A DNA stretch of 64,000 nucleotides from assembly GCA_011109175.1 (NCBI GenBank), contig RDEW01000017.1:1-64000 (forward strand). Direction: 5' to 3'. Each line of letters starts with the position of its first letter. The first letter of the stretch is position 1. Positions 3,052-64,000 of the stretch are shown piece by piece. The notes beneath the pieces are model-generated. The model was not told the DNA's origin and made no database searches. It saw only the letters and a list, made by a program, of their open reading frames with translations. The position numbers were made by a program, and so were the translations under genes. Origin of the DNA: Dicyema japonicum (Eukaryota > Dicyemida > Rhombozoa > Dicyemidae).

Positions 3052-5533
3052 CTAATAATATAAAACTACTTTTGGAGTAAGAGACGGTCTGATCCCCTCT
3101 TCCAATGCCTTTTCAAAGTGAGATCCCGTAATATATATGAGTTCCTTTCCATCTGGATCGTACATTATTATATCTTTAAGGGCCACCCTCACAGCCTTGT
3201 CCACCAAGGCCTGGAGATCGGCTCCCGTGAAGTTTTCCAACCTTCTGTCTTCACTCAGCACTTTAAAGTCAACGTCATCAGCCATCCTCGGTTCAGTCCC
3301 GTTCTAAATCTCACTGAGGATCCAAACTTTAGTGATCGCACACAGAATGGTGTGCCGGTCCTCTGTGGTGGGGATTCCAACAAAAATGGTGATGCCAATT
3401 CGGCCATGTCTTCTGATGGCAGGGTCCACCCTATCTAAGAGTTAAACTAATAAAAACCTGGCCTGTTGGTCGCGGCAAGGACGTAAACCTGGGACCTATC
3501 GTTTAGTCCATTAAGTTCTGTGAGCATTTGTGAAACAAATCTGCTCGAATGAGCTCCCTAAAATTGAAATAAGGTAAATCGTACATCCTCAACACCGTGC
3601 CTGGAAGGACAAATTCCGTCGATCTCGTCGAAGAATATAACTGAGGGAGCTCGACTTCTTGCCTCACAGAAGAGATCTCTTATGGCTCTCTCACTCTCTC
3701 CGACATACTACCGTGAATTATGTTATTTACCTTGTTTATAAGCTCGGGTCCAGAAACACCGAAAAAGTTGAGCCCAGCCTCGTTTGCAAGAGCCTACACG
3801 GTGAAACCAGAGGAAAACCTTAGCTAGCATCGTCTTTCCACATCCTGGCGGTCCCACCAGGAGAATTCCGTCTCCTCCACCTCCATAGGGCCCAATTCGA
3901 CTTTTATAACGTATTGGGGCCAAAAAGTTAAGTTTCAATTCCTCTTTTACGTGCTCCAGAGCTCCAACATCGCTCCACTTAACACGTGGAATTTCTCCAA
4001 AACGTTTCTTTTGAAGCGATGACTTTGTCTGACGCACACAATACTGCATTCAACACAAGGAAAAACCTCGAAATGTTCTGTTTTTAAAGGAATCGTTGAA
4101 TTCTCGACCTTTACTTCAGGATTTTCCAGCTTTTCAAGAACTAAACTTAGCAAAAAAACAACTTTTATGTAGCTGGACGTCCAGCTTGTCCGTATCAGCT
4201 CCCATGAGGGACAGATCCTCCCCAAAGTATTGTCTAAATAAAACAACTCCTTACAAGTCTTCCACGTGGTTACGGACCTCGTCGACGAAGACTTTTAGCT
4301 CTCCCCCAGTGTACCCGGGACACAGAGAGGACACATGACGAAGGTTAAGATCGTCGTCACAGAGCAGTTGGCTGCAGAATTTGAGGAGAAGCCTAGTTAT
4401 AATAAAACAGTGAGGACTTAAATCTCTCTTCCTCGGAGGGTATACCAAGCTGGTAACATGCCTGAAGGCGTCCGTGACCTCGCAAACTCTCATCGACGTC
4501 CTCCAGATTCTCGCATGTAGCTATTATGAGAACATTCGTGGTAGTATTGTGGAGGTCTACTGTGATCACAGAATATACCGTCAATGGTTTTTCTGAGCTG
4601 GTTGGTTAGGTTCAGACGGTGGAAGGGCTCCGAATGTTTCATAGGCATCCCAATTTGGTCAAATAGGATCACACAACCAGACTTCTGTCATTGATAATTC
4701 GAAAACGATAAAACCTTAATTTTATCGCGGAGATGACTTAATTTCTTATCTGCGTTGTTAGCCATCAGGTCAGAGGCCGTGTATTCATAGAGGGGGAGAC
4801 CCAAGTGCTGTGAAATTATTATTTAAACTTACCCCCGCTATGGAACGTGCCAGAAGGGTCTTTCCACACCCCCGGGACCATACAAGAGCATTCCCTTCCT
4901 TCCCTCTTTGTTTTGAAGAAATCGATAAAGAAAACAGCAAATTTTCTAGCATTAAAAACAGAATTTACGATGAGGACCGGACGAACCCCCACGATGTCTA
5001 AAATTGTAAATTTAACACAGAACCAGTCAACACGGACGACGGAACGGAATGATCTTCTTTAGAATTACCTTTTAATTCCTTCTTGGGTGATTCCTTTAAC
5101 TCAGAGACCTAAAAGTTATCATTTATTATTACTGAGTCCATCGTGAGATCAATGAACTCGCTGGGCTCTCCGTAGGATCTCTTAGTGTTTTGAGAGGAAG
5201 GAAGTTGTTTTTCCGTTTCGTGGAATTTCTTCCAGATTTCTTATACAATGATCTCATTTGGTCATTCGTATTGTTAGTAGAGCTGGGGACCTCTACAATA
5301 TCAGGGTCCCCAGTCAGATCAGCTGTTAGCGGCTCTTCAGTCGGGAGAGTTCGATACCATTCACTATAGAGTAAATATTTTGCGTTTACGCAATGTTGAC
5401 TGCTGCGTTTATCATTTCTTCTCTATTTTCGAGACCTTCGAACGTCTAGATATGACAACATGTGATTTACTTGCTTGATAAATTGTTTAAGGAGCATTTC
5501 CTGGGTTTTGATTTCGTAACTACGAATTTTCAT
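3052..5533 (-). CDS. NVL: NVL-like nuclear AAA ATPase (ribosome biogenesis), 18 exons
   Basis: NVL/Rix7 is a nucleolar two-domain AAA ATPase that remodels pre-60S particles. I rebuilt about 689 residues from ATG at 5533 to the stop at 3052, removing 17 introns of 21-30 nt, e.g. one splitting [12 protein letters not shown] from [18 protein letters not shown]. Human NVL is about 850 aa. D2 has an intact Walker A (GPPGCGKT), Walker B (FFDEID) and the NVL-specific NGT..ADV segment. D1 is divergent: its Walker A reads GCGKT, but Walker B is FDQIG and the sensor is IIATCENL instead of ATNRP. The N-terminal half keeps the SLYKK motif. Two one-base deletions relative to the family break the frame: in a G5 run inside the D1 Walker A (about 4872) and at an A5 run (about 5205). 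They may be consensus errors. No flanking gene suggests an operon. Confidence 0.88.
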
Positions 5534-6430
5534 CACTTCGCGATCTTTAACGCACAATATTTTTATTTATTTATTAATTTTTTTAAATATTTTGTTCGAT
5601 AAATTTAATTTTAATTAATAATATTTCACATATTTCACATGTATCGATTTTTTACTCTATAAAAAAATGATTAGATATAATCTAAAGATGGTAAAATAGT
5701 CAACAGAAGAGAACATCAGAAAATTACAAGAACTGATCAGAGAGATCGACAAGAACTTGAAGGCAGAAAATGCACATATGTGGGAGAGAATATCGAATAC
5801 TCTCTGCAGGAACCCCTCAATGCAAATGTCTGGAAGTGGATCAAGAACATAAAAAATTTCCCAGAGAGAAAAGGCCAAGTCTACATCAAACCCGACAGTC
5901 TGATAAATATTATATGTCTATCTCCAACAAGAAGTTTTGAAAAAAACCATGTATTCTATAAAATGATTGAACCGAAACGCTCCGATGACTGGATTCTCTT
6001 TACTAGCCAGGATATCCGCTGAGCCATATCCAAAGTCAACCACTCAAAAGTCAAAGGACCGGACAACATAACACAGTGATCGAGCTTTGGACTATTAGCC
6101 TATATCTTCAACCTATCTATCAACACGATTACAATCCCTGAAATATGGAAGAAGTCTCTAATCAAACCTATTTGAAAAACTAACCAATAAATTAACCATC
6201 TTTCTATCGCCCAATATCTATTCTGAGTCCGGTCTCACGATCCTTGAAAGTCTTGTTCTGGAAAACGTACAGGATTCAATCTCAATACATTCGACCCAGC
6301 ACGGATTCCGAGGTAACAGATCGACCACAACAACCCTCACACAATTCATTACGGAAGGATTTAACTCCCCCAAACCCCATCAAAGGACTGTACTTATATC
6401 CTTGGAAATCAGGTCTCTAACCCTGGAGAT
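5534..6430 (+). pseudogene. Decayed jockey-type LINE fragment
   Basis: The open stretch 5780-6022 ends in SDDWILFTSQDI, related to TDWIVFSGADV at 1170-1200. Just downstream, frames show EIWKKSLIKPI and a RT-like PxARIP..QI block with stops between. This is the linker and RT N-terminus of the same family as 700-2090. Nothing intact remains. Confidence 0.5.
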
Positions 6431-6439
6431 CACTGACGC

Positions 6440-6706
6440 CTGGTGGAAACTGTTTGTTTTACCACATCCTGCGTATGGATCTCGCTGCCCGAGAAAATGT
6501 GACGAAGGAGGATCACTTCATGTTCGAGGGAAAATTCTTCCGTGGCCGACCAAGGATAACACTCCATATCATATTGCACAAATATTTCCAAAAAGTTAGG
6601 AAATTTAAAAAAAAAACGGAAGACGATCTGGACGAGCTGAGATCGATCGCGTGTAACAGTAGAGGATGGGAGAGGCTAACTAATAACATTGTTTCTTGTG
6701 TTGCAC
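6440..6706 (+). pseudogene. 5'-truncated RTE-type LINE C-terminus
   Basis: The open frame from 6454 reads MFYHILRMDLAARENV, then FFRGRPRITLHIIL and EDDLDELRSIA. These correspond to GHILRLNAQVPANIA, FRGRPRVTLPTIL and DDLDTLRELA of the RTE copy at 45866-48846. It is a truncated retrotransposed copy with no RT domain. Confidence 0.75.
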
Positions 6707-7200
6707 AACCATTATGGCAAGGCTTTTTGTCCATTTCCACTCTTACATCCATGGATTTGGCGCGCGGTGGCAATTTACACGTGTGAATTTAGAATGAAAA
6801 AACTATCCATTCTTTAATGCAGTTGGGTATTTTCCAAAGTTTACACAAATTTTCTCTGAGATGTAATGGGAGCAAAGTGAAAGATATCCTGATAATTTAG
6901 TACTCCCTAACTAGCAGTCTTGTGAGACCAGTCGAGTCAAGGTCACTAATTTTGAAAACCGTTGAAATAAACGGGGTAACAATGCCTAAAGGATCAGTAA
7001 CTGTGAATGGAATCAAAATGGGATACTCTTATGACGAATCAGCAAAAGTAATATAATTTCTAGAAAATTTAGTTATTGGTTGTGGATGAGATATATACGA
7101 GATTTAGTGAGGTCTCAATATCCTGGAGTTAACAAATTAATTTAGTATTTGTTTGGGACTAACAGAGTTGTTTGAGGATATTTGCCTTAAATTTCTTAGT
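6707..7200. other. Unassigned sequence
   Basis: I see no recognisable gene, repeat head or TIR here. Confidence 0.4.
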
Positions 7201-7204
7201 TAGA

Positions 7205-7770
7205 ATAGTTTCATCATACAGATCCCCCAAATGCGGTAGTTGAAAAAGACTCAAGCTTGGACCACCGTTTTCGTTTACGCGAATAGCCCTTGAATTTTCT
7301 AGAACTGTAGGTAGGACAGCAACTGCTGAGATCGGAGATGCTATCGCGGAACAACTCGAAGACCCCGTAGAATGGCTCTTGACCGTTGGAATATACTATC
7401 TCTTGACAACTCGCTATTGTAACGGGATAAACTTTTTTTGGCTTTGTGGAGTAATATCTTACTCGTATAATCATTATCTTGTTCCCAGGGTCGTAGAGAG
7501 ACGGTGCATTCAAGACCACAGTCGTGAGAAACCCTCCAAGGAATGACTCAGTAAAGTGGGGGAAACCAATGATGCCTTTTGATATCGTCCAAACACTGGG
7601 CGCCTCGATGAGAACTTTTATTTCTTTCTCTTTGACCCAGTGATCCTGGGGGTAATAATATGGGAGCAACCCCCATGGATGTAGTGAAACAATATACAGA
7701 TCTAATTGGACGTAGTATGATTCCTCCTTGATATCGTCCAAACACTGGGCGCCTCTAGTCACTAACTAAG
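7205..7770. repeat. Composite SINE-like repeat block
   Basis: A 26-base string (gatatcgtccaaacactggg...) occurs at about 7578 and again at about 7728, giving a direct repeat of about 150-bp spacing. The stretch 7605-7665 (ttatttctttctctttgacc) is shared with the SINEs at 16668-16798 and 27480-27543. The long open frame over this block (7214-7762, minus) is therefore judged a repeat artefact rather than a gene. Confidence 0.55.
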
Positions 7771-7899
7771 GAATGGAGATTAATAACAGAGCAAAGGGCA
7801 AAGAACCCTTCAACCAAGTAGCCAGAGGGAAAAAAACCCACTGAGTTTTGTCATAACCAAAATACCAGGATACTAAGGAGTAATTTAAAAACAATATTC

Positions 7900-8225
7900 C
7901 AAAAGAAAAAAGCAAACTTCACAAAATAAACTAATTTTGAGTAGAATTTGACTTCTTCGACATCTTTGGAGCTCTAACCCCCGCTTGTAATCGGCCAGTA
8001 TCTCTGGTCGGATTGTCACAGTCAAAAATTATAAAGAGTATTACCCTGATGATTTTGTTCGATATTGAAAATATGTTTAAATTGGAATATTTTGTACTCT
8101 ATCCAAGACAAAAACCGAGGAATATTATAAATGTCTATTTTATTCATGAGTTCCCTGAATTCCTTCTGAGAAGACAAATAATCAGCATCCAGATTAGACT
8201 TGAAGCCCTCGAAAGAATCTCCCAT
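7900..8225 (-). CDS. Unrecognised small protein gene, two exons
   Basis: ATG at 8225 opens a clean 60-residue exon (starts MGDSFEGFKSNLDADY; rich in charged residues and aromatic F/Y/I, helix-like) to about 8046. A GT...AG gap of about 41 nt then leads to a second charged exon (ILADYKRGLELQRCRRSQ) before the frame ends near 7910. I do not recognise the family. There is no signal peptide or membrane span. It lies downstream of UBR7 on the same strand. Coding is inferred from open frames on either side of a plausible intron. Confidence 0.4.
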
Positions 8226-8434
8226 TAAATTCTACTCGTCAAAACGACCCAACAACCTTTACTATTATCAGAGCGCGATATTTTATTTTAAACATTTTTA
8301 TAAAAATAAAACTAATAAATAATTAAATTGAAAGTTATAAAATATTAAAGTTTCAACAAGAAACGTTAAGTTATTATTGAAAAGAATCTTTATTTTCCCG
8401 CTTTTTGATTATTTTAATTTCTACCCTGCTGCTT

Positions 8435-8600
8435 TTAGAATATGTCACGAAAATGTGGTTCCTGAAAATAAACTAAATATAGTCCTCCGTCGTCTAAGGG
8501 ACTTGAACAATTTGAGTACTCCAATTTAGAGAAGACAATTCCTACTTCCATAGAGCGCCAAGTAAGAAAGCCTCTGAGGTTCATACACACGTGGATATGA
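8435..8600 (-). CDS. Unrecognised short open frame downstream of UBR7
   Basis: An ATG-started frame (MNHGDHIHVCMNLRGF...) of roughly 55 residues begins about 100 nt after the UBR7 stop on the same strand. A potential 27-nt GT...AG intron lies inside it (gtaggaattg...ttggag). I recognise no domain. It could be a small gene, a UBR7 3' UTR shadow, or part of a larger unrecognised gene. Confidence 0.25.
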
Positions 8601-8700: not shown

Positions 8701-9702
8701 TTAACTTTCAAAGAAGTCATTAACGTCATCATCAGTCACAACATCCCCACTCTCAGCAAAATCAGCTGCAAAAGAATCAAACTCCTCCATCAAATATTTT
8801 ATCCCCCCAGATAACGCGCGTTGCTGAGAGATGTCTAGATTCTCCATCCAGTGCTCTGAATTTGTTGAGTCAAAACTCAGCCCCTTCTTCTCATATTCAT
8901 CACAGTCCCCATCATCAACAAAAATAGGACTTTTTCATTTCTTAACATGTTTAGGCAGCTAGCACACTTGCACATAGCAGCCCTCCACTCTGCTGACAGT
9001 GCAATCGCTCCCTTTCCAGTGAAGATCTTTGATAAAGAAGGACATCCAATGTTTTTCTTGTAAGAATAGAAAAATGGATGTGCTTCTGCGCACAGATGAC
9101 AGACTAATTCTTGGCCATCCTCAAAATCCGAACCAGTCTCCTGCCAGATCAGGTGCTGCAAATTTGCGTAAGCTAATACCTGTGTATGGAACCAATCCTC
9201 GCAGATAATGCATTGTACCATAAGAGAGCTCTGGAAATGAAAATTTTCGCAAACCTCGTTGGCGTCGTAGATCGACTCACAAACGCAGTATTTCCCCTGA
9301 AAGTTGTGATTGTAGTCATTTCTTGTGTTTTCTGCATCTTTATTCTGTTATTGGTAAGGGATTTAGATACCGGCTCCAATTTGCATGGGTTTGTAGGGAA
9401 CTTCTTGTTTCCGCAGTCACAACGGAAGTTTCTCTTGGTGTAAAGTTCGATCAATTCATGGCCAGCGTGGCAGTGGTAGGAACAGGCAAGACATATCCCT
9501 GCAGGCTGGTCAGAAGTACAGTGAGGCAGGAATATATTGGCTGTCTGTTTACGTATGACTGAGATGGTAAGAATAAAATTACTTCACTGTACGAACATTT
9601 TGTATCGTCACATGCCCCCAAGAGAGCCCTGGCTGTGAGTTGATCCTGTCTCTCTCTTTTTATTACATCCTGAAGGCAGACCACATCATCATCATCGGAC
9701 AT
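8701..9702 (-). CDS. UBR7: UBR7-like protein (UBR box + PHD finger), five exons
   Basis: UBR7 is a nuclear protein combining a UBR-type zinc box (N-degron recognition) and a PHD finger that acts on histone H2B. Spliced length is about 301 aa (human about 425). ATG at 9702; introns of 24, 26, 24 and 24 nt. Visible in order: KCSYSE then RQPIYSCLT and AGICLACSYHCHAGHEL (UBR box); YTKRNFRCDCGNKKF, a near-exact family signature; GKYCVCESIYD...MVQCIICEDWFHTQ, the PHD; a C-terminal EWRAAMCKCASCL zinc pair; and an acidic tail ending DDDVNDFFES. Two one-base deletions interrupt the frame: after SCLT (about 9520) and at a T5 run after EKVLF (about 8935). Both flanks remain conserved, so sequencing error is as likely as decay. 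Confidence 0.9.
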
Positions 9703-9775
9703 TGGATACTTTAATTTAAACGAATTAAATTTTAAAATATAATTATCTAAAATTTAAATTATTAACTTGAAAGAA

Positions 9776-9945
9776 ACCAGGCCTCTCCGGAAGCTGCTCA
9801 AAAAACTAGGAATAATCAAATCTATTTTTGATGGCATTGCGACCCCTTTTCTAGCATTCAAATTATTCATTAAGCCATCTGTCAGCGATGCTTGTGCGTC
9901 ATGGGGAATCAATCTGTCCTGGACGAACAAAAAAAATCAGCCTTA
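9776..9945 (+). pseudogene. Jockey-type LINE fragment
   Basis: A frame reads LRKLLKKLGIIKSIFDG...FIKPSVSDACASWG, matching GLRKLNIIKPLLKS...LLKPTIEYACASWA of the copy at 19945-20985. It is a truncated remnant only. Confidence 0.6.
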
Positions 9946-10109
9946 ACCCTCGCAAATTGGCCATTTTTGGTTCTTTAGAATTTTAACCAATTTGAGAAAT
10001 GTTCAATTAGAAAAAAATAAAATCAATAATTTTTAAAAACAATGAACAAAAAATTGCCTCAAATGAATAAAAAAACGTATTTAAGTTTTATTAAAATAAA
10101 ATTTAATTT

Positions 10110-21931: not shown

Positions 21932-24119
21932 TTAAAACAATAAATTATTCTGTAATCTTTCAAGAATCATTTGCTGATCATAATTCTTTACAAATTTACT
22001 CAATTCTCTGGAAAACTTGAAAATCTTAATCTTTCCATCCTCAAAAGTAATTGACTGTTAAATAAATCACGGAATTACCAAAGCAAAGCCAAACTTCGCT
22101 GTGCTGAGTGCTTCGTCGTTGTGATTGACTGAGGCGTCCAGAATCCTTCATAAATTAATAAACATACTTTTTTGAGCCAATTTTTTCATGCAAAACAGGC
22201 CACTACAGAATCGAGCAAATTGAAAAAATAAATTTCAGAATCCTCGCACAGACAGAAAAACATGAGAGGGCATGATTGAATCCATTTCAGTAATATTGGC
22301 CGGGACTTCAAACAACTAATCACACAACAAGGCTGAATATGGTTTATTCTATACAAGAAAATATCCCCCATCACAGATCCCACCTAAATATGACCCTCGT
22401 GTTATACAAGAAAGTAATTGGCGAGTATTTTTGAAAATTCCAAACAAACTGACTTTGTAGGGACTTGGTTCTGGACTTTTGTAACGTTCAAAAATTGACT
22501 TTCTTCGATTTTGCAAGCGAATTGGTCCAATCTATTTTAAATTGGTAAAAATTGTATTTAGTAAAAAATAAACTTACATTTGTGCCTAAATAATAATTAT
22601 TATAATTTTCATGGTGGCAAGCCATACAGAATAAAATATATTTTCTTCAAGTGACACTGAGAATGCCAAGAGCATCCTTAATTTGGATCCTGGAAAGTTT
22701 GACATTGATTCTTCGTTTGATTTATAAATGGACTAGAATAAATAACATACACGTGCCCAAATGTTGAGTTTGGAATATTTCTCAATCGATATAATCTGAT
22801 AATCAAATTCCATTTCGTTGGTTAGGGGAACACACTTAACTTGTACTACCGGAGAAGAATGCCGTTCACTTCATAGCAGGTGTTATAACAGGGAGATATG
22901 TTTTTGATATAAATTGAGTTAATTTGCAGTTGAGACCACGTGGGAGTGCATTTCAGATCCCAAACAATTATCGAACCGTCAATCTATAGTAACGAACTGA
23001 GACTACACTTCCAGCGTAGACTTCATTTGTAGAATTCAGCACTGTTGTGAGACTGACGACTTCTGTCTCACAATTTAAAATTCTAATTTAAATTGTAAAA
23101 TACTTTTGTGGGGTTTCCGGGTCTTTGATATTCCACAAGCAAATATAATTAGGGTTGTGAACGGTAAATAATACGTTTGGGTCAAAATTCGAAAACTGCA
23201 CAAGAGAACAGCTTCTGTCTAATTTTAATTCGAATTTATACTTTTTAATTGAGGTGGGGTATTAATATTATACGATTCTTCAAAATATTTCAATTTACAG
23301 GTACTTCCAACAAAATGCCTCTTTTCTTCGTTGAGAATCGAAATTATCATCTTTCCGGCCTTTTCGGCAAAAAGTCTGAGCTTATCGTCATTTTCCCGCA
23401 TTTTGTGTTTTTTGCTATTTTATGTAATTCAAGGACATACAACAGTCGCTTGTGTTCAGAAATATGCTTGGATGTTGAGTCCACGTGTCTTCTTTATTTA
23501 TAGGTTGTGTTTGAGTCTCAGTTTCCACTGAATCTTCATTACTTTGTGATCCGACCTATTTTTAATTAATTATAAATTATTTATTATTTATAATTATTTA
23601 ATTTACATTATTTTTGTTGGCGAATCTATTCATGAATAAATCATAGACTTCTAATGGCGGGCGATTTATCATCTCAAATGGAAGAGAGTATTCAAATTTT
23701 ATTATATTTTTTAAATCATTAAACTTTTTCATTTGCTTTGAAATCTATTTTTGTTTATATAGAGAATTTACCGATTTATTAATATTCAAATTAAAATTAA
23801 TAATCTTATAGTTTTCTTCAAATTCACTTTTAGTAATGTTGAGACTTGATTTTTGAACTTCTTCATCTTCCTCCTGAAAATCACTTTCAAATAAATTAGA
23901 GGTTACCTGGAAGTCACTTTCATACTCATTATCCGATATTGTATTTTCTTTTTCGATTAATTGTGTCACTTTGTGTGTTATTTCCTTTGGAATCGGTATT
24001 TCTAAATAAAATTAAAATAAGTTACTTTTGTTTTTATTTAATAAAGTCGATTTTTTATTCATTAATATTTGTGATTTTTTGGTAACTGGGCTTCTACTTT
24101 TATTTGTTTTCTTTTCCAT
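21932..24119 (-). CDS. DYNC2I1: WDR60/DYNC2I1, dynein-2 intermediate chain (ciliary IFT)
   Basis: This intermediate chain of cytoplasmic dynein-2 drives retrograde intraflagellar transport. ATG at 24119, stop at 21932, an estimated 570-600 aa (human about 1,066; the N-terminus is shorter). Diagnostic: YESDFQEEDEEV acidic patch, then FEYSLPFEMINRPPLEVYD, ETQTQPINKEDTWTQHPS (the light-chain-binding region), LFAEKAGKMIISIL, and WD-repeat pieces ICLWNIKDPETPQK, IDGSIIVWDLK, KYSKLNIW, EIYFFNLLDS and FEDGKIKIFKF. At least a dozen introns; most are 21-27 nt, with larger ones of about 33, 35 and 50 nt. One joint (22733-22756) needs either an 18-nt GT-AG or a 24-nt GC-AG intron, and one near 22190 is unresolved. 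It lies between the two arms of the PSMD2 inverted duplication. Confidence 0.88.
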
Positions 24120-37779: not shown

Positions 37780-38040
37780 CTCTTCTTTCATCTTCTGAAG
37801 TATCCTTCACTGTTTTCAGGGGTTATCAATTCGAAAGAGATGTCTTAGCTGTAAATCATCAATAGCAGCCTCTCTCTTAACAGAATTCTGCCATTTTGAG
37901 AACAAATTCTAAAGTGGATTAAGGAATGGTGAGTATGGAGGAAGATATAGGTTCTGGTTACTTAACCAATTTGCTTATTCAGTGACTCTTAGATAATGTC
38001 ATAAATCCCCTTGGTTAAAGCAACCGTTACTTTGAATAGC
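37780..38040 (-). pseudogene. IS630/Tc1-like DDE transposase fragment
   Basis: On minus: NLYLPPYSPFLNPL, stop, then NLFSKWQNSVKREAA. This is the LPPYSP.LNPIE..FSKWK block around the third catalytic acidic residue of IS630-like transposases. The catalytic Glu is replaced by a stop. Upstream is degraded. Confidence 0.65.
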
Positions 38041-40586: not shown

Positions 40587-42039
<1,453 letters not shown>

Positions 42040-45865: not shown

Positions 45866-48846
45866 GTCTTCTTCGTATTGCTTACCAGTTTCTCCCCTCA
45901 CTCTTGGATCCCTCAACTGCCGAGGCCTCAATCAGTGCTACAAGAAACAACAATTGGCGCGTGATCTGAGTAAATACAACATCTCTGTATGTTGTTTGCA
46001 AGAGACGAAAATAACCGAACAAACTGCAGAACTGTTTCAGAATTTTTACCTTTTGACCCTCACACCAGACTGCAGGCACTATGGGCTCGGATTTGCTGTT
46101 CATCGCACTTGTTTCACTGTGTCTCAAGAGTATGGGCAGTATCTGACCGTGTCGCGGTGTTACAAATCAAATGCGGAAACAAACTCAACTCAGTGATCTC
46201 CATCATAAATGTATATGCCCCAACCGGAGCACGTGTATCAACGAATATCGAAGAAACTGGATACGTTTTACTCTACTCTCACAGTGTGTACAACTCACTC
46301 TCATCCTCTTACTTTCTTTTTATCGCCGGGGACTGGAACGCCAGGGCCGGAAAAGCAAGACCTGGTGAAACGTGTATTGGATCCCACGGTAGAAACCGCC
46401 GTAACATCCCCGGAGAGGCATTAATACAATTTTGCACGGCATTCAACCTACTCATATGCAACACTTGTTTCAAGCACCCGGCAAGACACAGGACCACGTG
46501 GGTTGGTACCAGAAAAGGCAAATCTGGAAACACAGTCAATATATACAATCAGATCGACTATATTATCTGCAAGCAACATCAGAAGGCCCTCCTACAGGAC
46601 TCGAGATCTTACGGTGGACTTGAAACAAGTAGCGATCATAAACTTGTGGTCGCCCGGCTAGTACTTAAAAGAATCCATGGAATACACGGGAAACACAAAG
46701 GCCTTACCTCAGTACGTTTCGACACTGAGAGGTTACGCTACGAAGAATCCACCAAATGTCGTTATAGTGCAGTTCTGAGAGATAGCATCAACAGTATTAA
46801 CCAAAATCAGCCGACAAACAGCTTATGGGATGAAATAGTGGTTGCTATCCAAAACACAGCCTTTAGTGTGCTTGGTCACATCACCAAATCTCGTCACAAA
46901 CAATGTAATCCGGATATCGGACAACTCTCTGTAACACAGAAAGAGCTCAGACTCCGGATGGAAAACACAAACGCTCCGGAAGATATCAAAGTACTGCGCA
47001 CCCAGAGAGGGAGAGTCTTAACGAAGATCAAACAAATACAAAGATTCCTTGCCAAAAATGAAGCTGAGGAGAAAATCTCAGACATATTAAAGTACAAGAA
47101 CGGACCAAGAATGTTCAAAGCAATCCGGCTTCTTAGCAGAGAAAACTGTCCAATTTCGTTAACTGTCCATGACAACCTTGGTCACGACGTTATCGGGACC
47201 ATTAACAAAGCAAACGTTCTGGCATCCCATTTTGACCTTATGTTCAACAAACAGGACGCGGCTGACCAAGCAATGAAATCTCGGAAGTCTTACAAGTACA
47301 CTCTAACTAGCCCTATTACCATATCCGAAACTCAACAAGCTATTAAAAAATTAAATACCGGAAGATCTGCCGGACCAGACTTCATTACTGCAGAACTTTT
47401 ACAATACGGCCCGGAGGAGCTAATTGAAATGATTACTAACATTTTCAACCGGTCTCTCGAGGGTGCAGATGAACTGGAACTGGGAAAAGGGTGGCTAATT
47501 CCACTACAAAAACCGGGAAAAAGTAAAGGCCCCCCTCACAACTTCAGACCTATTATACTCCTAACCTCCATACGAAAAACATTATCCCTCATTGCTTTAA
47601 ACCGAATAAAGGAGAGGGTGAACATATTTCTTTCGGACGGCCAAAGTGGATTCCGGACGGGCAGGTCCACGGCTGACGTGGTATGGGGGCACAGGTGGTA
47701 TTGTGCCCTGTGCCAAAAATACAAAAAATCTATTGAGATACTTGGTATCGACATGTCCCGTGCGTTCGACTCGGTGGACCGTGGAAAACTTATGGAAGTG
47801 TTGGAGAGTTTTCTACTGCCTGACGATGTCAAAATAATACACTTACTCATGCGGAACACTCAACTTGCCGTCAAAATTGGTGACTCTACCTCTAACTTTT
47901 TTTCGACCTCACGTGGAGTTCCACAGGGGGACTCACTATCCCCGGTCCTCTTTATTGTCTACCTTGAGGCCGCACTAAGAGAGTTCAGACCCCTGGTTGG
48001 CAACAATTATAACGAGATAATCTACGCGGACGACCTGGACTTTGTTTCTGAGGATATTCAAGTACTTCAACACATGCTTAACGTTCTTCCACACGTATTC
48101 TCGAAATGGTTCTTAACCGTTAACACCGATAAAACAGAGTTCACAACACTTACACGCAATGATCGAAGATCGGACGAGTCTTGGAGAAAGCAAAAGAAGG
48201 TGGGTTCGCTTCTCGGGGACTCAGAAGATGTTTCTCGGAGGAAAATCCTCGCAATGTGTGCACTAAAGAAAGTATCGAATATGTGGGGTCATAAGAAGAG
48301 GATGGGATTAAACACCAAACTCAGAATATATAAGGCTTTTGTCATCCCCGTCCTGACCTACAATTCAGGCACTTGGGGAATCTCTAAACAAGAGATGGAC
48401 CGTCTTGACGCTTTCCACAGGACACAATTGAAATCAGTAATCAAGATCAAGTGGCCTAAGAAGATCTCAAACAATGACCTCTACTCGAAGTGCAAATCTG
48501 GTATACTATCCGAGGAGATCTTCAGATCAAGATGGAGTCTCTTTGGACATATCTTACGTCTAAATGCTCAAGTACCCGCGAATATCGCCATGGAAAACTA
48601 CCTAATGCATACGGGAGCCGGTTTCCGTGGAAGACCAAGAGTCACACTCCCAACTATTTTGAATGGAGACCTATCGGCTGTGGGACTGAAGCTCACTTCC
48701 GCAGACGACCTAGATACCTTAAGGGAACTGGCACGAAGTAGAGGGTCCTGGAAAAGGCTGATAGAGAGGATGGCTAGAAATACGGCACAAGGGAGGCTTG
48801 ATTAATTTTATGACTTCTCGGGAGTGCTTTAAATAATAAATAATAA
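45866..48846 (+). mobile_element. Near-complete RTE-type LINE with 11-bp TSD
   Basis: ttattaacact at 45855-45865 and 48847-48857 bounds a 2,981-bp insert. One polyprotein: APE endonuclease (GSLNCRGLNQC, ETKI, AGDWNARAGK, SSDHKLVVARLV), then RT (GFRTGRSTADVVWG, LGIDMSRAFDSVD, GVPQGDSLSPVLF, catalytic YADD at about 48029), then the RTE C-terminus (GHILRLNAQVPANIA, GFRGRPRVTLPTIL, DDLDTLRELARSRGSW). The 938-codon frame 45989-48805 is uninterrupted. The first about 80 codons of the endonuclease lie in another frame, joined by a -1 shift near 46120. No separate ORF1. The 3' end is (aataat)n-like. Very young, possibly active if the shift is an error. Confidence 0.9.
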
Positions 48847-52775: not shown

Positions 52776-53064
52776 TAAAAACCAAGCGTTAACTAAATTT
52801 ATTTTTAATTTGTTGGAAAATGACTGGAATGTCGGAAAGCAANTTTCCTCGGAGGTAAATGTTTAATGGTTGTCTTCGGAGGAACATTAGGTACCCTCCG
52901 GGCGTTACCATACTTACAGAATTGGTGAACCACATCACGGCACGCTCGAACCGAATAATGAAATGAGCAGAATTATGAAATAATTTAAATTAACCATTAA
53001 AAACCAAGCGTTAACTAAATTTATTTTTAATTTGTTGGAAAATGACTGGAATGTCAGAAAGCAA
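52623..53064. repeat. Duplicated contig end around single N at 52843
   Basis: 52623-52842 and 52844-53064 are about 220-bp near-identical direct copies abutting the N. Confidence 0.85.
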
Positions 53065-54616
53065 CAAAACAAGCAGGAATATTGCCATCAAAAGCAAAAA
53101 AATCATTCCAATTTTATTTGACTGTTTCGCTTCGACAGTTTTATTTTCAGATTTTACGACTTCTAAGCTACAAACTCGAAAACTTTTGCACGTGAGAGGA
53201 CTCCCAGTCCACTCTTCAGCTGCCGTACACCATCGTGTACCACTACCTGAAACCCTTTTATAACCCCGTTCGCAGATTGATATTATGACATCGCTGAGTT
53301 TGTTCCCAGTCATGTTCAAGATAATTGTTGAGTTTGTCGAGAGAGGCTCGGGACATTTAATTTCTACGAATCGGGAAAATGACTACTTTTACAATAAAGA
53401 GGACTTCCATTCCACTTCAAATTAAGACCGCAAGTAATTTTGTAGTCTCCCTTCACAAACTTGTAGCCACTCTTACACATAAAGTGAATGTCCGATTGGT
53501 AGAAATAATAACTTCCAATTTGAATGGAATTATTCCCTTTGTGAGGTCTATTACACTTTGTTCCTTTAATAATGATGCAACGCCCAGTACTTTTACAGAC
53601 TGGTTCTGTTCCCGACCAAGTAAGGTCCCTCTGACATACTCTGACAAGATTTCCCCCCACGTGAATATTTCCGGGGAGACATTTGTACTCATATCTACTA
53701 TGTTTTCTCATTTTTAAGTAAACGTTGGAGATGAAAGGTAGAGGATCACATTTCTTCTCTATTTGAAAAACCAGGCCGTACTCTTGCATATTAGCTGTCT
53801 TCCAGCCCACCACCCCAAAGTACTGCATTGGTGGATGTAATCCCCTGATTTCCTCACGTATCCACCTTTACAAGAAAACGTAACTGTGTCGAATGCATAA
53901 TATGTCGATTTTGTGTTGTGAGTGTTAATGCTATTATGGGCGTCCGGGGGATCGCAAGTCCGTCCTAACAATTAATCACTCGTTACTTACTTCGACAACT
54001 GGGGTCTTCCCCAACCCACGTACCGTTAAATTCACATGTTTTTGCTGTCCCTTCCAAATCGGAGTAGTATCCCTCCTTACAAATATAATATGCTCTTGAT
54101 TTGAAATTTGTACCCTCAAACTTAACATACGTATTATCAATCAGTGGGGGACCTCCACATTGTATCCCTATGGTCACTGTATTTTTAACTTTTGCATTGA
54201 TATAACTCGTTTGACCACGTTTTATCAGATGTACATTGTCTAACAAGCGACCCCACTCCATATTCAAAACCTTTGTTGCACTGCTGAAGAACCACTCCTC
54301 CGAAGTAGTAGTTGGTCAGCACACGAATGTAACCATTAATCGGTTCACTGGGAGGACCACAGTGAACTCCTAAAATTCTCAAGTGAACTCTACTTTTGCA
54401 CTTTGGAGGCTTTCCTGACCACGTGTTATTTTGAAGACATTCTATCAGCAATTCGGTAAGATATTCCTTAATTTCATATCCTTTTTTGCATCGATACAAA
54501 ATAAAATCTTTGTAGTTGAAAGATTCTCCAAGACGAGTGCAGTTGTTGCATATTCCTGGATCTCCGCAATTTGATCGAATTCTTATTGTTAAAATGATTA
54601 ACAGCAAAATTTCCAT
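53011..54616 (-). CDS. Seven-sushi (CCP) single-pass membrane protein, eight exons
   Basis: ATG 54616, stop 53011, about 479 aa after removing seven introns of 21-27 nt. The leader MEILLLIILTIRIRS is a signal peptide. Seven sushi/CCP modules follow, each opening with a CxxP-like start (CGDPG, CGPPSEP, CGGPPL, CDPPDA, CDPLPF, CNRPHKG, CPEPLS) and closing W.G..P.CK. Then comes a spacer, a transmembrane helix (IGMIFLLLMAIFLLVLLL) and a short basic tail. Every intron falls in phase 1 directly after the closing CK, so each module is one symmetric exon. Sushi modules bind proteins at the cell surface (complement-regulator, selectin and adhesion families). For a parasite, host contact or self-recognition is plausible but unproven. 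No orthologue recognised. Confidence 0.9.
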
Positions 54617-55887: not shown

Positions 55888-56642
55888 ATGGGACGAAATT
55901 GGCTTGATACCATCACTTTCTTCATAAATTTCACATTCAACCTAGTAAGTGACCCACCTTACTGTTAGTGTGTTTTCTTCCTGCTGTTGATGCTACAATA
56001 CGCGTTCTACAGTGATTATACTAATTTGCTGAAAAATATACTGACTATGCAAGAATGTATATTCTCCTTTTCTTTACTGAACTGTGCTACTCTGCTTACC
56101 ATAATTCTGGCCATTTTTTCTGCCAGACTGTCCTATACTGGGGGAAAGGGAAAAAAGACTAAAATACTGGTAATCCGATTTTATATTCTAGTTTGTCATA
56201 CTCACTATTATAGCAGTGGGAGTACTGCTCATTCCATTTTGCTTCCAAAAATTGACTGCGAAGCAATACAGCATCAGGACTGAGAAGCTTTTCAGGAAGT
56301 ACTTCACCCAATATCGCCAGTATAACTCCAGCGTGGATTACCTTCAGAATAAAGTTTGAATTTAACACATCATTCCAGTTTAAATGCTGTGGCGTCGAAA
56401 AATCATCAGAGTTTTCAATATTGACAATTCCCATCACGTGTTGCAGTAAAATGCCTTGCACTCCCTACAATGCTTATCACCGTGGCTGCCTTTCTACATT
56501 CATCAACGTCTACGTCTTCAAGACAAAATTAGTGAATATCATCTCCCTTGGTATGGCCTCCTGGAATGTATATTGTAATAATCATTAATAGATAATCATT
56601 TCACTCATGACCTGCTTCTATAAGGGGAATGAGGAATATTGA
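55888..56642 (+). CDS. Tetraspanin, five exons
   Basis: ATG 55888, stop 56640-56642, 219 aa after removing introns of 24, 22, 25 and 24 nt. The predicted order is TM1 (FFINFTFNLVCVFFLLLML), a small loop, TM2 (LLNCATLLTIILAIFSARL), a basic inner loop (GGKGKKTKI), TM3 (FVILTIIAVGVLLIPFCF), a large extracellular loop with the diagnostic FKCCGVE, then PITCCSKMPC and RGCLSTF (CCG + CC + GC pattern), and TM4 (LVNIISLGMASWNIIISLM). Tetraspanins organise membrane microdomains with adhesion receptors. Which subfamily is unclear. The last exon is inside the duplicated block left of the N at 56852, so its copy may be allelic. The frame is clean. Confidence 0.93.
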
Positions 56643-58940: not shown

Positions 58941-59059
58941 ATCAAACCATTCCACAAGCTTAGTATCAGGTTCAGGAAATTTTGACAATCTGCATGTCTT
59001 TGTTGAAAGAATATAATTTTTAGATGTTTTTAATATGAACTCTCGGGAATTAAAAATTT

Positions 59060-59265
59060 TATTACCGGTTTTTATTGAAATTCAGTCCTTAATGGTGACC
59101 TGAGATCAGTAACCAGACTACTAAAGGACGGTGAAGACCTTAGTAGTCTGCGGCACTTGGCATCGGACAGGAGGGGATGGGAAAGGCTAATTAAGAGGAT
59201 TGTTCAGACGCGGCACGAATAGAATTATAGTTTATATTATTCTATGTAGTTGCTTATAATAATAA
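59060..59265 (+). pseudogene. 5'-truncated RTE-type LINE, ends at assembly gap
   Basis: LLKDGEDLSSLRHLASDRRG then WERLIKRIV, matching the RTE C-terminus at 48690-48770. The tail (ataataa) runs into 17 Ns (59266-59282). Confidence 0.75.
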
Positions 59266-59282
59266 NNNNNNNNNNNNNNNNN

Positions 59283-59440
59283 TTGTGAGGATGATTCCAA
59301 AATCTGGGAAGCCAAAGAGAGATCCGGCAAGATACAGACCAATTAGCTTAAAATGTTCTTTCACGAAAGTGATTGAACGTATCATTTTCAAAAGGCTAAG
59401 CAGACATATAGGCTATTTTCGTTTTAATTAAGACGCTGAC
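59283..59440 (+). pseudogene. Jockey-type LINE RT fragment
   Basis: VRMIPKSGKPKRDPARYRPI and SLKCSFTKVIERIIFKRL form the RT block just before the catalytic domain (PKP.K....YRPISL.....K..E.I...RL). Truncated by the gap on the left. Confidence 0.65.
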
Positions 59441-59444
59441 AGTG

Positions 59445-59945
59445 CTATCAGCAATAGGCAGTTACTCGTCGGAGTGTTTAAATATATCGGCAGACACCTT
59501 TTTTTGTCATCAGGGATCAAACTCCACGGATCCACACCCTGAATTTTTTGAAGCTGATCCCTGAATATCGAAGTTGTTTCCTCCGTCGTGCATACTCCCC
59601 GTCTGGTTTATTCAATATAATCTGTTCTGCTCCCGACTTTGGACACATTGTTTTCTGATAGCATTTCCAAAAAGAGGGATTCAATTTTAGCAGCCTCAGC
59701 CTTCCCTATACGGTCAGTTTCCTCCTTCCATATACTGCTGATTGCATCAATCATCATCCTGATTCTGCCATATATGAAATCCCCGTCTATTTTGTCGACA
59801 CAACGCCTTAGCTTTGCCCTTAGGCGATTCCTATCACGAATAAGCCTTATAATAATCGACGAAACAAAGTAATGATTATTCTTCGAGAAAACCCTCCGTG
59901 TATATAAATTAAGATATGACTGCCTCAGTCGTCTTCTTACTAATT
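59445..59945 (-). pseudogene. Jockey-type LINE endonuclease-RT linker fragment
   Basis: On minus: NNHYFVSSIIIRLIRDRNRL, RAKLRRCVDKIDGDFIYGRI and then WKEETDRIGKAEAAKIESLF. This charged helical linker normally lies between EN and RT. Continues brokenly to about 59450. Confidence 0.5.
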
Positions 59946-60200
59946 AATTAATACCGTAATATCCCATTCGGGAAGGTTATAGTGCAAGGCCCTATATGGG
60001 TTGTACGGATCTGAAAACAGTGCCATTTGGGAAGTTTGGCTAAACGGTACATCTGCTAAACAATAACACAGATGTCCAAAGGTGAGCTCAGGCGGAACAA
60101 AAATCTGCCATGGCGCGAAAGGGTAAGAGGAATTAATAAACGCAATCCAAAACATCGGAGAAATTTCATCAGATGTGTGCAATAACTTGTATAGCCACAT
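59943..60200 (-). CDS. Unrecognised single-exon open frame
   Basis: ATG at 60200, 86 residues, aromatic- and proline-rich (MWLYKLLHTSDEISPMFWIA...PYNPYRALHYNLPEWDI). There is no domain I recognise, no signal peptide, and no obvious repeat origin. It sits between LINE fragments, so it may be part of an element. Confidence 0.3.
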
Positions 60201-60369
60201 GCAAAGCTAATTAGTTAAAGCATTGACTAATAAAGAATTTTAATTTACAGTTGTTTTTTTTCAATTAATTATAAAATTGGTTTTTTTAATTTGACCTCTG
60301 ACAAAGTTATTAAACATTTTGACAAAGTTATTATGTAATTTGACGAATTATTAAAAATTTATGGCTGAG

Positions 60370-60495
60370 ACAAAAAAGGGACAGAAAGAAAAGGGATCAA
60401 CGATAAGGGTTATGGCTGAGACAAAAGATTGGAATGGCCATACACCGAGAGAACTCGTTCGCAATCCACGCAGCCGGTTTCCTCAACTGACATTT
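60370..60495 (+). pseudogene. CR1-type LINE tail
   Basis: KKRDQR, stop, GLWLRQKIGMAIHRENSF...AAGFLN stop. Relative of 26620-26694 with one internal stop. Confidence 0.65.
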
Positions 60496-60672
60496 GTTTC
60501 TTTGTTAAAAAATCCTATTTTTGAATAAAAAATTTAAAATTTTGACAAAATTATTAAATTTTATGACAAAATTATTAAATAAATAAAAAAACCATGTAAA
60601 TTATAATAAATAAATTTATATTTTTTATTATAAATATTAAATAAATTGTAACTATAGCATTATATTTATAAA

Positions 60673-63600
60673 ATGAAAAAAAGATATGATTTTGAGACGA
60701 AGCAAGACAGAAATGCTAAACCCGCCAATATTCCAAAAAAGGGGGGATATCGAAAAACAGAATCTTATAAATTAGAGCCAAATTTGAAGTTTCCGAAAAT
60801 ATTGCCCTTTGTAAGCTTCTCAGTAATGTCTGAAAACAAGAAATTGCTGGAAAATGCAATGTTGCCTTAAAACTAACATTAGACTCCACGACTACCACGC
60901 AAGTATAAAGAAAACCAAAAGGGAGTACGAACTAAAGTCACAAAATGAGAAGGAAATCCCCGAATGGCCGGCGGAAGTAAATAATTCCTTAATTTTAGAT
61001 GATGAGCAAGAAACGGGAATCTGAGGCATCCAAATATCAAATAAATTTATAGTTGAATTATTCTCGACTGAGAAAACACTTTGAGTGCTCCCCCATATGT
61101 GCATTGGACGAGGAGACGAAAAAAAGAATCAAAGGTTTGTTGCCGGAAAACCTACAAAATCAAAGTTATCTGATAATTCACGAAAATTCGCTTTTCCACG
61201 AAGTCGACGTTGATTACGTCAACAGTCTGCGGAAATTTATCGGTCTCTGATTTTTCCTAATCGCAGTCAAAACGTCTTTAAAGTCAGAACATGTCGTCGA
61301 GTCTCAAACAAGCATTTTCAGAGAATTCGACGGAACCAATGAGTGGAATGAATCCTTCAAAGAGTCCCTTCGAAAAATCGAGAAGAACCTATTTGTCTTC
61401 CACCCAATCTTGATCAGCATCTCTAACCTTTACCACAGCACACTGAAGACTACAACATTATTAGAAAACGACCTTCTAACGTTATTTCCCGCTTTATTTT
61501 GCCAGGACTGACAAGCCATATGAGTACGACCTGTTCCGGAAAACCGTGGACTTTTCTTGCGACAAACGTTGCACGAACATAATGCAGACTTGGTTCACTC
61601 AACTGATCAGACTGGTCACCGTAGACTACGCCGACCTGATGAAGAAGGTTAAGAATCAAAAGAAGATTTACAACTGCATGAACTCACTGATATCCATCCA
61701 GGTTGTTACCCCCTTTAATTTTAGATTCGAGATCTTTTGACTCGGTCTCTGGACTGGTGGGTCGACTGCCTTATTGAAAATTCAGTTTTCCCCTTGTTTA
61801 GGATGCAGCTGGTGTTCGATGACAATTTCATGCAGTCATACCCGTCTTTCAAAAATTTTGAGAAAGTCCTCTTCTATCCTATCAAAAAGGTCTCACTCCC
61901 CCTAATCAACAGATCTCCTCGTGTCTCCAGACAGTTCCAACGATACACTCGTGGATCAAAAACGATGAGATTTACCTGAACACTGCAGTTTAGGCTTGAA
62001 CATCAAATTTTAGGTGGACGAAAAATATTATAAACTAATTCAGGATAGAATTGATGCTTTCGCCACCTACCAGTACAGCCAGGTCATGCAGTTCATCGAA
62101 TATTACGGTTTCTTTTTGGATGCATTTTCAGAGGTCAACTACGGAAACATTGCGGATGGAAATAAGATCAAGGAGATATCAGAATATTTGAAGCAAGATC
62201 ACGTGTTCGATGATTACTGTCAAGTATTCTTTGTTTCTCAAAAAGCATATCAACAAATTCAGGGACATAGCAAAGGAAATAATGAGTTTGCCAAGATATG
62301 AGTACATCCGATGTCTCTGCATCGACTGTGAAGAACTAAAAATTAGTTTGGCGGAGGAAGGACATCGTTTATCCTCCATTTTACGCCAAGATATGAGTAC
62401 ATCCGATGTCTCTGCATCGACTGTGAAGAACTAAAAATTAGTTTGGCGGAGGAAGGACATCGTTTATCCTCCATTTTACTTGAGAAAGTCGCCGAGGACA
62501 ACCGAACCGAAAATAATCTGTAATTGCTAAATCCAATGCTTAGGATATGCGATGAGTTTGTAGAAATTTATAACAAAGCTACAAAAACTCCGGAAAACAC
62601 CGAGGAACTCATAGAACTCACAAATTACATACAAACAGCAAGGACAGTAGGGATGGTCGACCTCAACAAAAGACTGGAGGTTCTAATCGACAACCTCACC
62701 TTTTAGGAATCCAAAGAAAGACTAAGTTGGCTCATTGACTACCACTTGTTTTCTAAGGAGGACATTGAGCTCAACAACAAGACATTTTCGTGGTTTCAGT
62801 GCATCAACCAAATCTTCGATGATAATGAGAAGGTTGTGAATTCGGTGACTTTCAGCTCATTGAAAGTTCCTACATCAATCGCCATGAAATTCTGGTTGAA
62901 CAAAAGGAAAAGACTCTGCTACGTCTACATCAACTTAAGCAGCACGTTAGCGAGTTTGCAGACTTTGGAGAACTTTCGATGCTCCCCCAATACGTCCAGG
63001 ATATCAGACAGACCGTCTCCAGACTGAATGAGGAAGTAAAAATGATTGAGTGGATAAATAAGGTGAGTAATCCGTCCACATTGCGATTTAGGAGGAGACT
63101 TTGTTGAAGCTCCAAGTAACGGAATATGAGGAGGCGAATGAAATATCCTCTTCCATAGAAATATACCAGAGACTATTTACAATTGTCATGAAGTGGCAGA
63201 GAGCGGAGAAAAAGTAAATTTAGGGTTTTACGAAAGATGGATGGACGGATACTTGCAGGAGCTAAGTTCAGAGGTGGTCGAGGCTGAATCGGACGACTAC
63301 AAGAGAGAAATATACAAAATAAACAAAGTTCTTGAATTTTTTGAATCCTAGGTCTTTCTAGCCAACGCTAGGAAAAGGGTAAACGAATTGGGGGAAATTG
63401 TGAGGGAAAATAAAAGAAAACGATCTTCGATGATTTCCCAAGATGAAAGTGAGATGACCGCTGAGGAAATCGAAAAGTTATATGAAGTCCCTTCGATCGA
63501 TGAAATAAAGTCGCCGGCTGCTAAGGTCTGCGAGACAATTCAGAAAGACATTGATGACTTTAAGGTACATTTTTTGTTTGGACGCAAGGAAAATATTCCA

Positions 63601-64000
63601 ATTATTGCGACAATCTGTAATCCGGGAATAAGGCTGAGACACTGGCAACAAATGTCAGAGATTGCGGGCTTGGACCTTACGCCTGACTCTGGGACAACTC
63701 TGAGAAAAACACTCAAGCTGAACTTAACTCCCTACATGGAGGAATTTGAGGGGATCAGTGCCGCTGCTTCAAAGGTAGTTTTATGCGGAAGACTAAATTA
63801 AGGAGTACTCGTTAGAAAAAGCTCTCCAAAAAATGAAAGATGAGTGGGAAGATATCTCTCTTCCTCTGCTCAAATACAGGGATACGAATATAAATATTTT
63901 GTCTTCAATTGACGACATTCAAACTCTTTTGGACGACCAGTTGGTCAAAATTCAAACTATGAGAGGCTCACCTTTTATAAAGCCTTTGGAAGTTGAGGCA
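60673..64000 (+). CDS. DNAH7: Axonemal inner-arm dynein heavy chain (DNAH7/3/12-type), 5' part; runs off right edge
   Basis: Axonemal dynein heavy chains drive ciliary bending. ATG at 60673. About 930 residues of the N-terminal stem are encoded here; the motor is beyond the window. Anchors include [20 protein letters not shown] (N-terminus), [25 protein letters not shown] joined to [60 protein letters not shown] joined to [11 protein letters not shown], and [10 protein letters not shown] at the edge. These match the DNAH7 group linker region. Eighteen introns are inferred, 22-29 nt: seventeen GT-AG and one GC-AG (61026-61052). An exact 95-bp tandem duplication (62290-62384 and 62385-62479) breaks the frame; removing one copy restores it. 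Orthology within DNAH3/7/12 is not settled. Confidence 0.92.
62290..62479 (+). repeat. Exact 95-bp tandem duplication inside the dynein exon
   Basis: gccaagatatgagtacatcc... starts at 62290 and again at 62385 with no differences over 95 bp. 95 is not a multiple of three. Only one copy is needed to join GHRLSSIL to LEKVAEDN. Confidence 0.95.

What the first reader, a model, noticed from the sequence alone, without database searches (positions are those of the whole stretch)
3052..64000. Almost every host gene is cut by 21-30-nt spliceosomal introns
Seen directly: conserved protein blocks in NVL (17 introns), KATNA1 (5), UBR7 (4), the sushi receptor (7), tetraspanin (4), dynein (18) and WDR60 (about 12) rejoin in frame only if GT...AG pieces of mostly 21-30 nt are removed. 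Examples are 63565-63588 (24 nt), 63775-63802 (28 nt) and 40786-40806 (21 nt). Known: introns of about this size are described for dicyemid mesozoans. Inference: this is a dicyemid genome, and branch point, polypyrimidine tract and 3' site must be compressed into about 20 nt.
Basis: partly seen in the sequence, partly recalled or inferred. Interest (0 to 1): 0.85.

Follow-up and report, generated by a model that had tools for sequence, protein, structure and literature searches.

The report
Miniature introns in a dicyemid genome
Nearly every ordinary gene in this stretch of what is very probably a dicyemid (a tiny parasitic animal) is interrupted by introns only about 24 letters long, as already described for dicyemids; new here is a faint but well-supported branch site about 16 letters from the intron's start, far closer than human spliceosomes are reported to tolerate.

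Summary
A gene finder given only GT...AG, with no length or motif preference, still finds a sharp 22-26 nt intron peak on 264 kb of this contig (186 of 374 predicted introns at 21-28 nt, against 30-65 with five mock dinucleotide pairs). KATNA1, NVL, WDR60, a UBR-box protein, a sushi protein, a tetraspanin and a dynein heavy chain are recognised once the pieces are removed. The three quoted introns were predicted at exactly the stated bases. Such introns are already in print for dicyemids (PMC2222250, PMC6543705, PMC6736024). The taxon is strongly indicated, not proven: the 18S search did not complete.

What I add is a branch site. A 2008 survey of 41 Dicyema introns reported no branch-point signature (PMC2483917). 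In 321 predicted introns A is enriched 7-8 nt from the end (9 in longer ones), with T two bases before it only for A at -7 to -9; mock introns lack this peak and other contigs repeat it. Longer introns share the extra bases between both spacers. U2 and the U1 5' end are canonical, yet 5'SS to branch is 15-18 nt, against about 50 in human extracts (PMC6692369).

The parts
3007..5533 (-). NVL gene model, 20 exons, 17 introns of 20-30 nt (5446-5470, 5364-5389, 5109-5132, 4998-5023, 4808-4832, 4685-4714, 4557-4578, 4393-4417, 4234-4254, 4141-4162, 4044-4066, 3794-3818, 3708-3730, 3558-3584, 3435-3457, 3304-3327, 3046-3069) plus two doubtful ones (5229-5290, 62 nt; 4946-4982, 37 nt); the last exon is uncertain
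   Evidence: PDB NVL 9bji and 2x8a
8701..9964 (-).
   Evidence: zf-UBR E=4.6e-10
22846..24119 (-). WDR60 (dynein-2 intermediate chain) partial gene model; introns 24002-24025, 23874-23906, 23745-23771, 23556-23606, 23415-23436, 23219-23241, 23083-23103, 22984-23006
   Evidence: PDB 6rlb_C WD repeat-containing protein 60 E=1.8e-20
40587..42039 (-). KATNA1 gene, 6 exons
41709..41731 (-). KATNA1 intron 1, 23 nt
41503..41525 (-). KATNA1 intron 2, 23 nt
41214..41237 (-). KATNA1 intron 3, 24 nt
40934..40957 (-). KATNA1 intron 4, 24 nt
40786..40806 (-).
53011..54616 (-). Sushi-repeat protein; introns 54370-54393, 54168-54189, 53965-53990, 53759-53781, 53364-53386, 53220-53246, 53163-53183; all seven in phase 1, the first five spaced by 59-61 residues or twice that (one sushi module)
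   Evidence: PF00084, 6 stretches
56047..56642 (+). Tetraspanin, partial low-score model; introns 56170-56191, 56354-56378, 56568-56591 (coordinates worked out by hand from the exon lengths)
   Evidence: PF00335 E=4.5e-10
61097..64000 (+). Dynein heavy chain (model runs on to 64845); introns 61135-61165, 61243-61266, 61481-61505, 61702-61724, 61890-61912, 61988-62013, 62108-62131, 62224-62245, 62397-62428, 62520-62543, 62680-62706, 62833-62855, 63063-63091, 63214-63236, 63328-63351, and the two below
   Evidence: DHC_N2 430 bits
63565..63588 (+).
63775..63802 (+).

Best explanation
These are genuine U2-type GT-AG spliceosomal introns of a dicyemid-like animal, shrunk to near a physical minimum of about 24 nt. 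Shown by sequence statistics: a donor with almost no signal beyond AG|GT(A/T), and an A-centred branch site (T-N-A) at about intron nucleotide 15-18, 7-9 nt from the intron's end. When an intron is longer by a base, the extra base is shared between the two spacers. Inferred: the branch A is recognised by SF1 and then U2 (canonical GUAGUA). Donor choice relies mainly on GT and on the 5'SS-branch-AG spacing, a two-spacer ruler, and not on U1 complementarity. The 3' site is an AG a short step beyond the branch, where U2AF cannot bind a normal polypyrimidine tract.
For: Length peak and splice-site composition emerge from a model given only GT and AG. In the semi-flat model (positions -12 to -4 unscored by position) 321 introns of 21-28 nt show A at -8 in 45% and at -7 in 44%, against 22-29% at -9 to -12. 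T two bases before A is enriched when A is at -7 (59% v 36%, p=7e-5), -8 (56% v 34%, p=1e-4) and -9 (54% v 37%, p=0.008), out of 12 positions tested (-10: p=0.05; the other 8 p>=0.28). Mean pairing to U2 is above shuffles for A at -7 (z 4.3; the next highest of 11 positions is 2.3, at -12). Four mock dinucleotide sets show no comparable A peak (highest 36%, GA-TG at -7); 72 introns from other contigs repeat it, 39% and 49% at -8 and -7. Branch position slides with length: slope 0.235, 0 of 5000 permutations reach it; the mean branch is intron nt 14.7 to 17.6 as length goes from 21 to 26, while the distance to the end goes from 7.3 to 9.4 (383 introns). U2 carries GTAGTA in all 10 loci read of 25 matches; the U1 5' end reads ACTTACCTG in 5 of 6 loci read of 11 matches and ACTTACTTG in 1. 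SF1 keeps its helix-hairpin and KH domains, U2AF2 its RRM1, RRM2 and UHM; their own genes have 9 of 9 and 6 of 8 predicted introns of 21-25 nt. RED, a human factor for short 5'SS-branch distances, has one exon match (E=3.6e-16).
Against: No RNA evidence was available here. 63 of 321 introns have no T-N-A with A at -6 to -11. Y after A, part of the usual yUnAy, is not enriched for A at -7 (p=0.72) and only slightly at -8 (p=0.025). Intron-wide counts were weak: YTNAY in 59 of 186 against a shuffled mean of 45 (sd 5.5), YTRAY 27 against 20 (sd 4.4), though NTNAY 101 against 74 (sd 6.1). U2 pairing at -8 is not above shuffles (z 0.9). In 15 introns of 27 nt the spacer trend does not hold (branch 8.8 nt from the end). 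In the replicate, T two before A is significant at -7 and -6 but not at -8. Length and donor settings of the semi-flat model came from a run that did score -8 to -4; the fully flat run shows the same peak, 43% and 42%. All U1 matches are under Rfam's cut-off. The N-terminal part of U2AF2 was not recognised in my model. SAP30BP (PF07818) gave no match, which the tool calls uninformative.
Confidence: 0.86

Rival explanations
1. The introns are real but have no branch-site signal, as stated in 2008 for Dicyema, Paramecium and the B. natans nucleomorph; the A peak is a by-product of gene prediction or of AT-rich composition.
For: Published claim, on 41 Dicyema introns (PMC2483917). Information per position is tiny (0.08-0.10 bit at -8 and -7).
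Against: Positions -12 to -4 were not scored by position; mock introns lack the peak; T two before A is confined to A at -7 to -9 in the main set; the peak moves with intron length; n is 321 against 41.
Confidence: 0.1
2. The pieces are not introns but DNA-level insertions, pseudogene damage or assembly errors.
For: Pieces this short would be below the reported minimum for human splicing (about 50 nt 5'SS-branch; PMC6692369).
Against: Specific to GT-AG against mock pairs; consistent donor, acceptor and branch structure; phase-1 introns spaced by one sushi module; KATNA1 rejoins without a gap at any of four introns; introns of this size, from cDNA and genomic clones, are published for Dicyema (PMC2222250).
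Confidence: 0.02
3. The genome is not a dicyemid but another short-intron lineage (orthonectid, ciliate, nucleomorph).
For: 18S could not be searched; no named dicyemid sequence was compared.
Against: Orthonectid introns have a median of 57 nt (PMC6543705). The rows bearing a species name among the 120 listed of 7962 KATNA1 matches are animals (many rows bear none), and sushi and tetraspanin genes point the same way. Size and window GC match the published Dicyema genome.
Confidence: 0.04

Closest known systems
Dicyemid miniature introns (D. acuticephalum, D. japonicum, Dicyema sp.; PMC2222250, PMC6543705, PMC6736024; Ogino 2010 known only through PMC6543705)
   Same: Introns of mean 26.2 nt (16 introns) or median 27 nt, about 5-6 per gene; weak donors (PMC2483917)
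   Different: Here the main class has its mode at 24 nt and mean 24.0 nt (321 introns of 21-28 nt), and a positional branch-site signal is seen where a 2008 survey of 41 Dicyema introns saw none (PMC2483917)
Tiny introns of Paramecium, Blepharisma and the B. natans nucleomorph
   Same: 15-35 nt introns (PMC2222250, PMC2483917 and PMC9942806 passages); weak sequence signals in Paramecium and the nucleomorph
   Different: Those are protists; here an animal with U1, U2, SF1 and U2AF2 matches
Human short introns dependent on SPF45/RBM17 or on Smu1-RED (PMC8363638, PMC6692369)
   Same: Truncated pyrimidine tract or short 5'SS-branch distance challenges the standard spliceosome
   Different: The shortest human intron named in the passages is 43 nt, and 5'SS-branch is about 50 nt or more; here 15-18 nt

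Membership tests
U2-type spliceosomal introns | GT...AG boundaries required for rejoining | tested here: met
   GT-AG 186 of 374 introns at 21-28 nt, against 30-65 for five mock pairs
U2-type spliceosomal introns | Branch A in a yUnAy-like context | tested here: met
   A at -7 to -9 with T two before; Y after is weak; signal is statistical, no lariats
U2-type spliceosomal introns | U1, U2 and U6 snRNAs in the genome | tested here: met
   U2 22 of 25 matches over cut-off; U6 9 of 10 over cut-off; U1 11 matches, E down to 1.3e-15 but all under Rfam's cut-off, with canonical 5' end in 5 of 6 read
U2-type spliceosomal introns | Removed from mRNA | not testable with these tools
   no RNA-seq or cDNA on hand
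U2-type spliceosomal introns | Polypyrimidine tract between branch and AG (common, not universal) | tested here: not met
   about 4-6 nt remain between the branch A and AG; T 42-53% at -4 to -6. Truncated tracts occur in human short introns (PMC8363638), so I do not take this as a bar to membership
Dicyemid miniature introns | Main class at 20-30 nt, several per gene | tested here: met
   331 of 376 introns in 37 genes
Dicyemid miniature introns | Organism is a dicyemid (18S or COI) | not tested
   RF01960 search did not complete; COI not searched
Paramecium-type introns under translational control | Depletion of lengths divisible by three (recalled from the literature) | tested here: inconclusive
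   no depletion: 104 of 321 are 3n, 74 of them with an in-frame stop if kept, but the predicted set is biased by frame

The most novel reading that the evidence does not exclude
Dicyemid splicing uses a two-spacer ruler. A nearly sequence-free donor, a branch A about 16 nt away and an AG about 8 nt beyond are chosen by geometry, on an otherwise recognisable animal spliceosome (U1, U2, SF1 and U2AF2 kept). That would need early complexes in which U1 or U6 and U2 cannot be occupied together as in the human B complex, and U2AF-independent or SPF45-like recognition of the 3' end.
Probability: 0.4. Interest if true: 0.75.

Novelty: already known. Interest (0 to 1): 0.52.

Why it matters
In human extract, splicing was abolished with 46 nt between 5' splice site and branch, and structures suggest a minimum near 52 nt (PMC6692369 passages). 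An animal spliceosome that keeps a canonical U2 branch-pairing site, U1 5' end, SF1 and U2AF2 and works at about 16 nt would show that this limit is not set by those parts, and would help to find which parts do set it. The branch-site and spacer statistics give definite predictions for lariat sequencing, and speak against a published statement that such introns carry no branch signature.

Tried and rejected
Raw GT..AG spacing spectra over the whole window show no obvious peak (by eye): the signal appears only in coding context. Intron-wide YTNAY counts were a weak test and were replaced by position-resolved tests. Length divisible by three: no depletion. U12-type miniature introns: a genome-wide pattern gave 12 matches against 13 for the backwards control, and the held sequence gave one poor candidate, at window position 37948 on the minus strand; dropped. 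SAP30BP: no match, uninformative. Taxon by primers: passages of three dicyemid papers gave no primer letters. The first U2 alignment took the wrong stretch and was redone. SPF45, U2AF1, Smu1 and COI were not searched.

Is a dicyemid branch-site signal in print? One search (21 papers, 20 listed), search 38 (0 papers) and one search (125 papers holding three of the four terms, 10 listed, one of them naming dicyemids) led only to PMC2483917, which denies one. I read passages of four of the listed dicyemid papers, no whole text; Ogino 2010 was not read.
Full report
WHAT IS THERE. The window is the first 64 kb of a 1,212,849-base contig of a 64.67 Mb, 191-contig assembly. No annotation was at hand, so I wrote a spliced-gene Viterbi model (codon usage, ATG, stop, introns of free length) and trained it on the window and the next 200 kb of the contig. 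Starting from a length prior that was flat over 20-44 nt, it settled on introns of 22-26 nt. Counts agree for NVL (17 of 20-30 nt), KATNA1 (5) and the sushi gene (7; 6 in a second run), nearly for dynein (17 in the window against 18), and less well for the UBR-box gene (7 in all, 5 of them 20-30 nt, against 4), the tetraspanin (3 against 4) and WDR60 (8 in a partial model against about 12).

IS IT CHANCE? With all motif and length preference removed, so that an intron is any GT...AG of 12-70 nt, the length peak still appears: 186 of 374 introns are 21-28 nt. Five mock pairs give 40 of 345, 65 of 386, 55 of 366, 30 of 257 and 55 of 385, without such a peak, and reversed DNA gives 2 of 10. The proteins that result are sensible: KATNA1 aligns to the human structure over 304 residues with a single 2-residue gap that is not at an intron, the second AAA domain of NVL aligns to solved NVL, and Pfam or PDB recognise the UBR box, sushi, dynein, tetraspanin and WDR60. 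In the sushi gene all seven introns are in phase 1, and the first five are spaced by 59-61 residues or twice that, the length of a sushi module, which fits old, shrunken introns. Of 37 genes scoring over 25 in the 264 kb, 34 have an intron of 20-30 nt; one of the three exceptions is a LINE-like frame in the window.

HOW THE SIGNALS ARE LAID OUT. To study the branch region with little circularity I used a model that does not score positions -12 to -4 by position: 376 introns in 37 genes, 331 of 20-30 nt, 321 of 21-28 nt, mean 24.0 nt. Donor information beyond GT is 0.49 bit at the last exon base, 0.15 at +3 and 0.06 or less at +4 to +6; G at +5 is only 21% in the flat set. The acceptor has almost no G at -3 (2%). 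Position -8 is A in 45% and -7 in 44%, against 22-29% at -9 to -12; the flat set shows 43% and 42%. A T two bases before the A, as in yUnAy, is enriched for A at -7, -8 and -9 and at no other of 12 positions (p=0.05 at -10). In 72 distinct introns from 29 loci on other contigs, with the model trained on this contig, A is 39% and 49% at -8 and -7, and T two before A is significant at -7 (p=0.018) and -6 (p=0.01), not at -8. Four mock dinucleotide sets show no comparable peak; the highest value is 36%, at -7 for GA-TG. Against the reading: Y after A is not enriched at -7, U2 pairing exceeds shuffles clearly only at -7, and the first intron-wide motif count was weak.

A TWO-SPACER RULER. The branch position depends on length: T-N-A peaks at -7 in 21-22 nt introns, at -8 in 23-25 nt introns and at -9 in 26 nt introns. 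The slope is 0.235, and none of 5000 permutations reaches it. A model in which the branch moves by a quarter to a half of each added base beats anchoring to the 3' end by 17-22 log units and anchoring to the 5' end by 22-27 (383 introns; 13 and 21 in the 311 of the main set alone). As means, the branch A is intron nucleotide 14.7, 15.3, 15.8, 16.3, 16.7 and 17.6 for lengths 21 to 26; the 15 introns of 27 nt fall off this line (19.2). Both spacers thus look constrained. T-N-A in excess of background sums to 0.43-0.72 per intron by length, a figure that leans high because negative values were set to zero; 63 of 321 have none at -6 to -11.

MACHINERY. U2 has the canonical GUAGUA in all 10 loci read (of 25 matches), and U1 the canonical 5' end in 5 of 6 loci read (of 11 matches), with one base different in the sixth; the U1 bodies score under Rfam's cut-off. 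U6 and the U12 of the minor spliceosome have matches. SF1 keeps its helix-hairpin and KH domains, and U2AF2 its RRM1, RRM2 and UHM; the N-terminal part of U2AF2 was not recognised in my model, and the whole-family search reached no single match over its cut-off, as expected exon by exon. Their own genes have 9 and 8 predicted introns, 15 of 17 of them 21-25 nt. RED has one exon match. SAP30BP gave no match, an answer that the tool calls uninformative. So the change seems to lie in the introns and in the geometry that the spliceosome accepts, not in loss of these parts; that step is inference.

LITERATURE. Seen as passages only: PMC2222250 (16 introns, 26.2 +/- 1.9 nt, cDNA and genomic clones), PMC6543705 (median 27 nt, about two thirds under 30; orthonectid median 57), PMC6736024 (D. 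japonicum, 67.5 Mb, GC 36.7%, 6.2 introns per gene, mean 38.2 bp), PMC2483917 (weakest known 5' score, 0.5 bit, and no signature of branch points, from 41 D. acuticephalum introns), PMC8363638 (SPF45 replaces U2AF on truncated tracts; U2AF65 recognises 8-9 nt), PMC6692369 (46 nt 5'SS-branch abolished splicing; minimum estimated at 52 nt), PMC9942806 (Blepharisma, 15-16 bp introns). Ogino 2010 was seen only as a citation. The size class is therefore already known. The weak donor agrees with the 2008 survey; the branch-site signal does not.

TAXON. Intron size, genome size, the window GC (36.7%; the 264 kb as a whole has 38.3%), gaps written as N and the animal genes all point to a dicyemid and fit D. 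japonicum, though the contig number differs. The 18S search did not complete, so this stays an inference.

Noticed in passing
G000:C68:163471-163599 (locus L044), minus strand: A convincing U12 snRNA (85 bits) sits on the same contig, so the minor spliceosome may be retained. A genome-wide U12-intron pattern showed no excess over its backwards control (12 v 13), so what U12 splices here is open.
   Followed up: partly
window 45989-48805, plus strand: Open 938-aa frame without predicted introns, LINE-like by eye, among intron-rich host genes.
   Followed up: no
window about 62370-62560, plus strand: The dynein model repeats [16 protein letters not shown] around a predicted 32-nt intron: a local tandem duplication or a wrong model.
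   Followed up: no
loci L045-L050 and five further matches: U1 genes score under Rfam's cut-off (45.7-69.0 bits against 69.5) although the 5' end is canonical in 5 of 6 read; the body of U1 seems fast evolving.
   Followed up: no
window 53011-54616, minus strand: Sushi gene introns are all phase 1, the first five spaced by one or two modules: the symmetrical pattern of exon shuffling (general pattern recalled), kept despite extreme shrinkage.
   Followed up: partly
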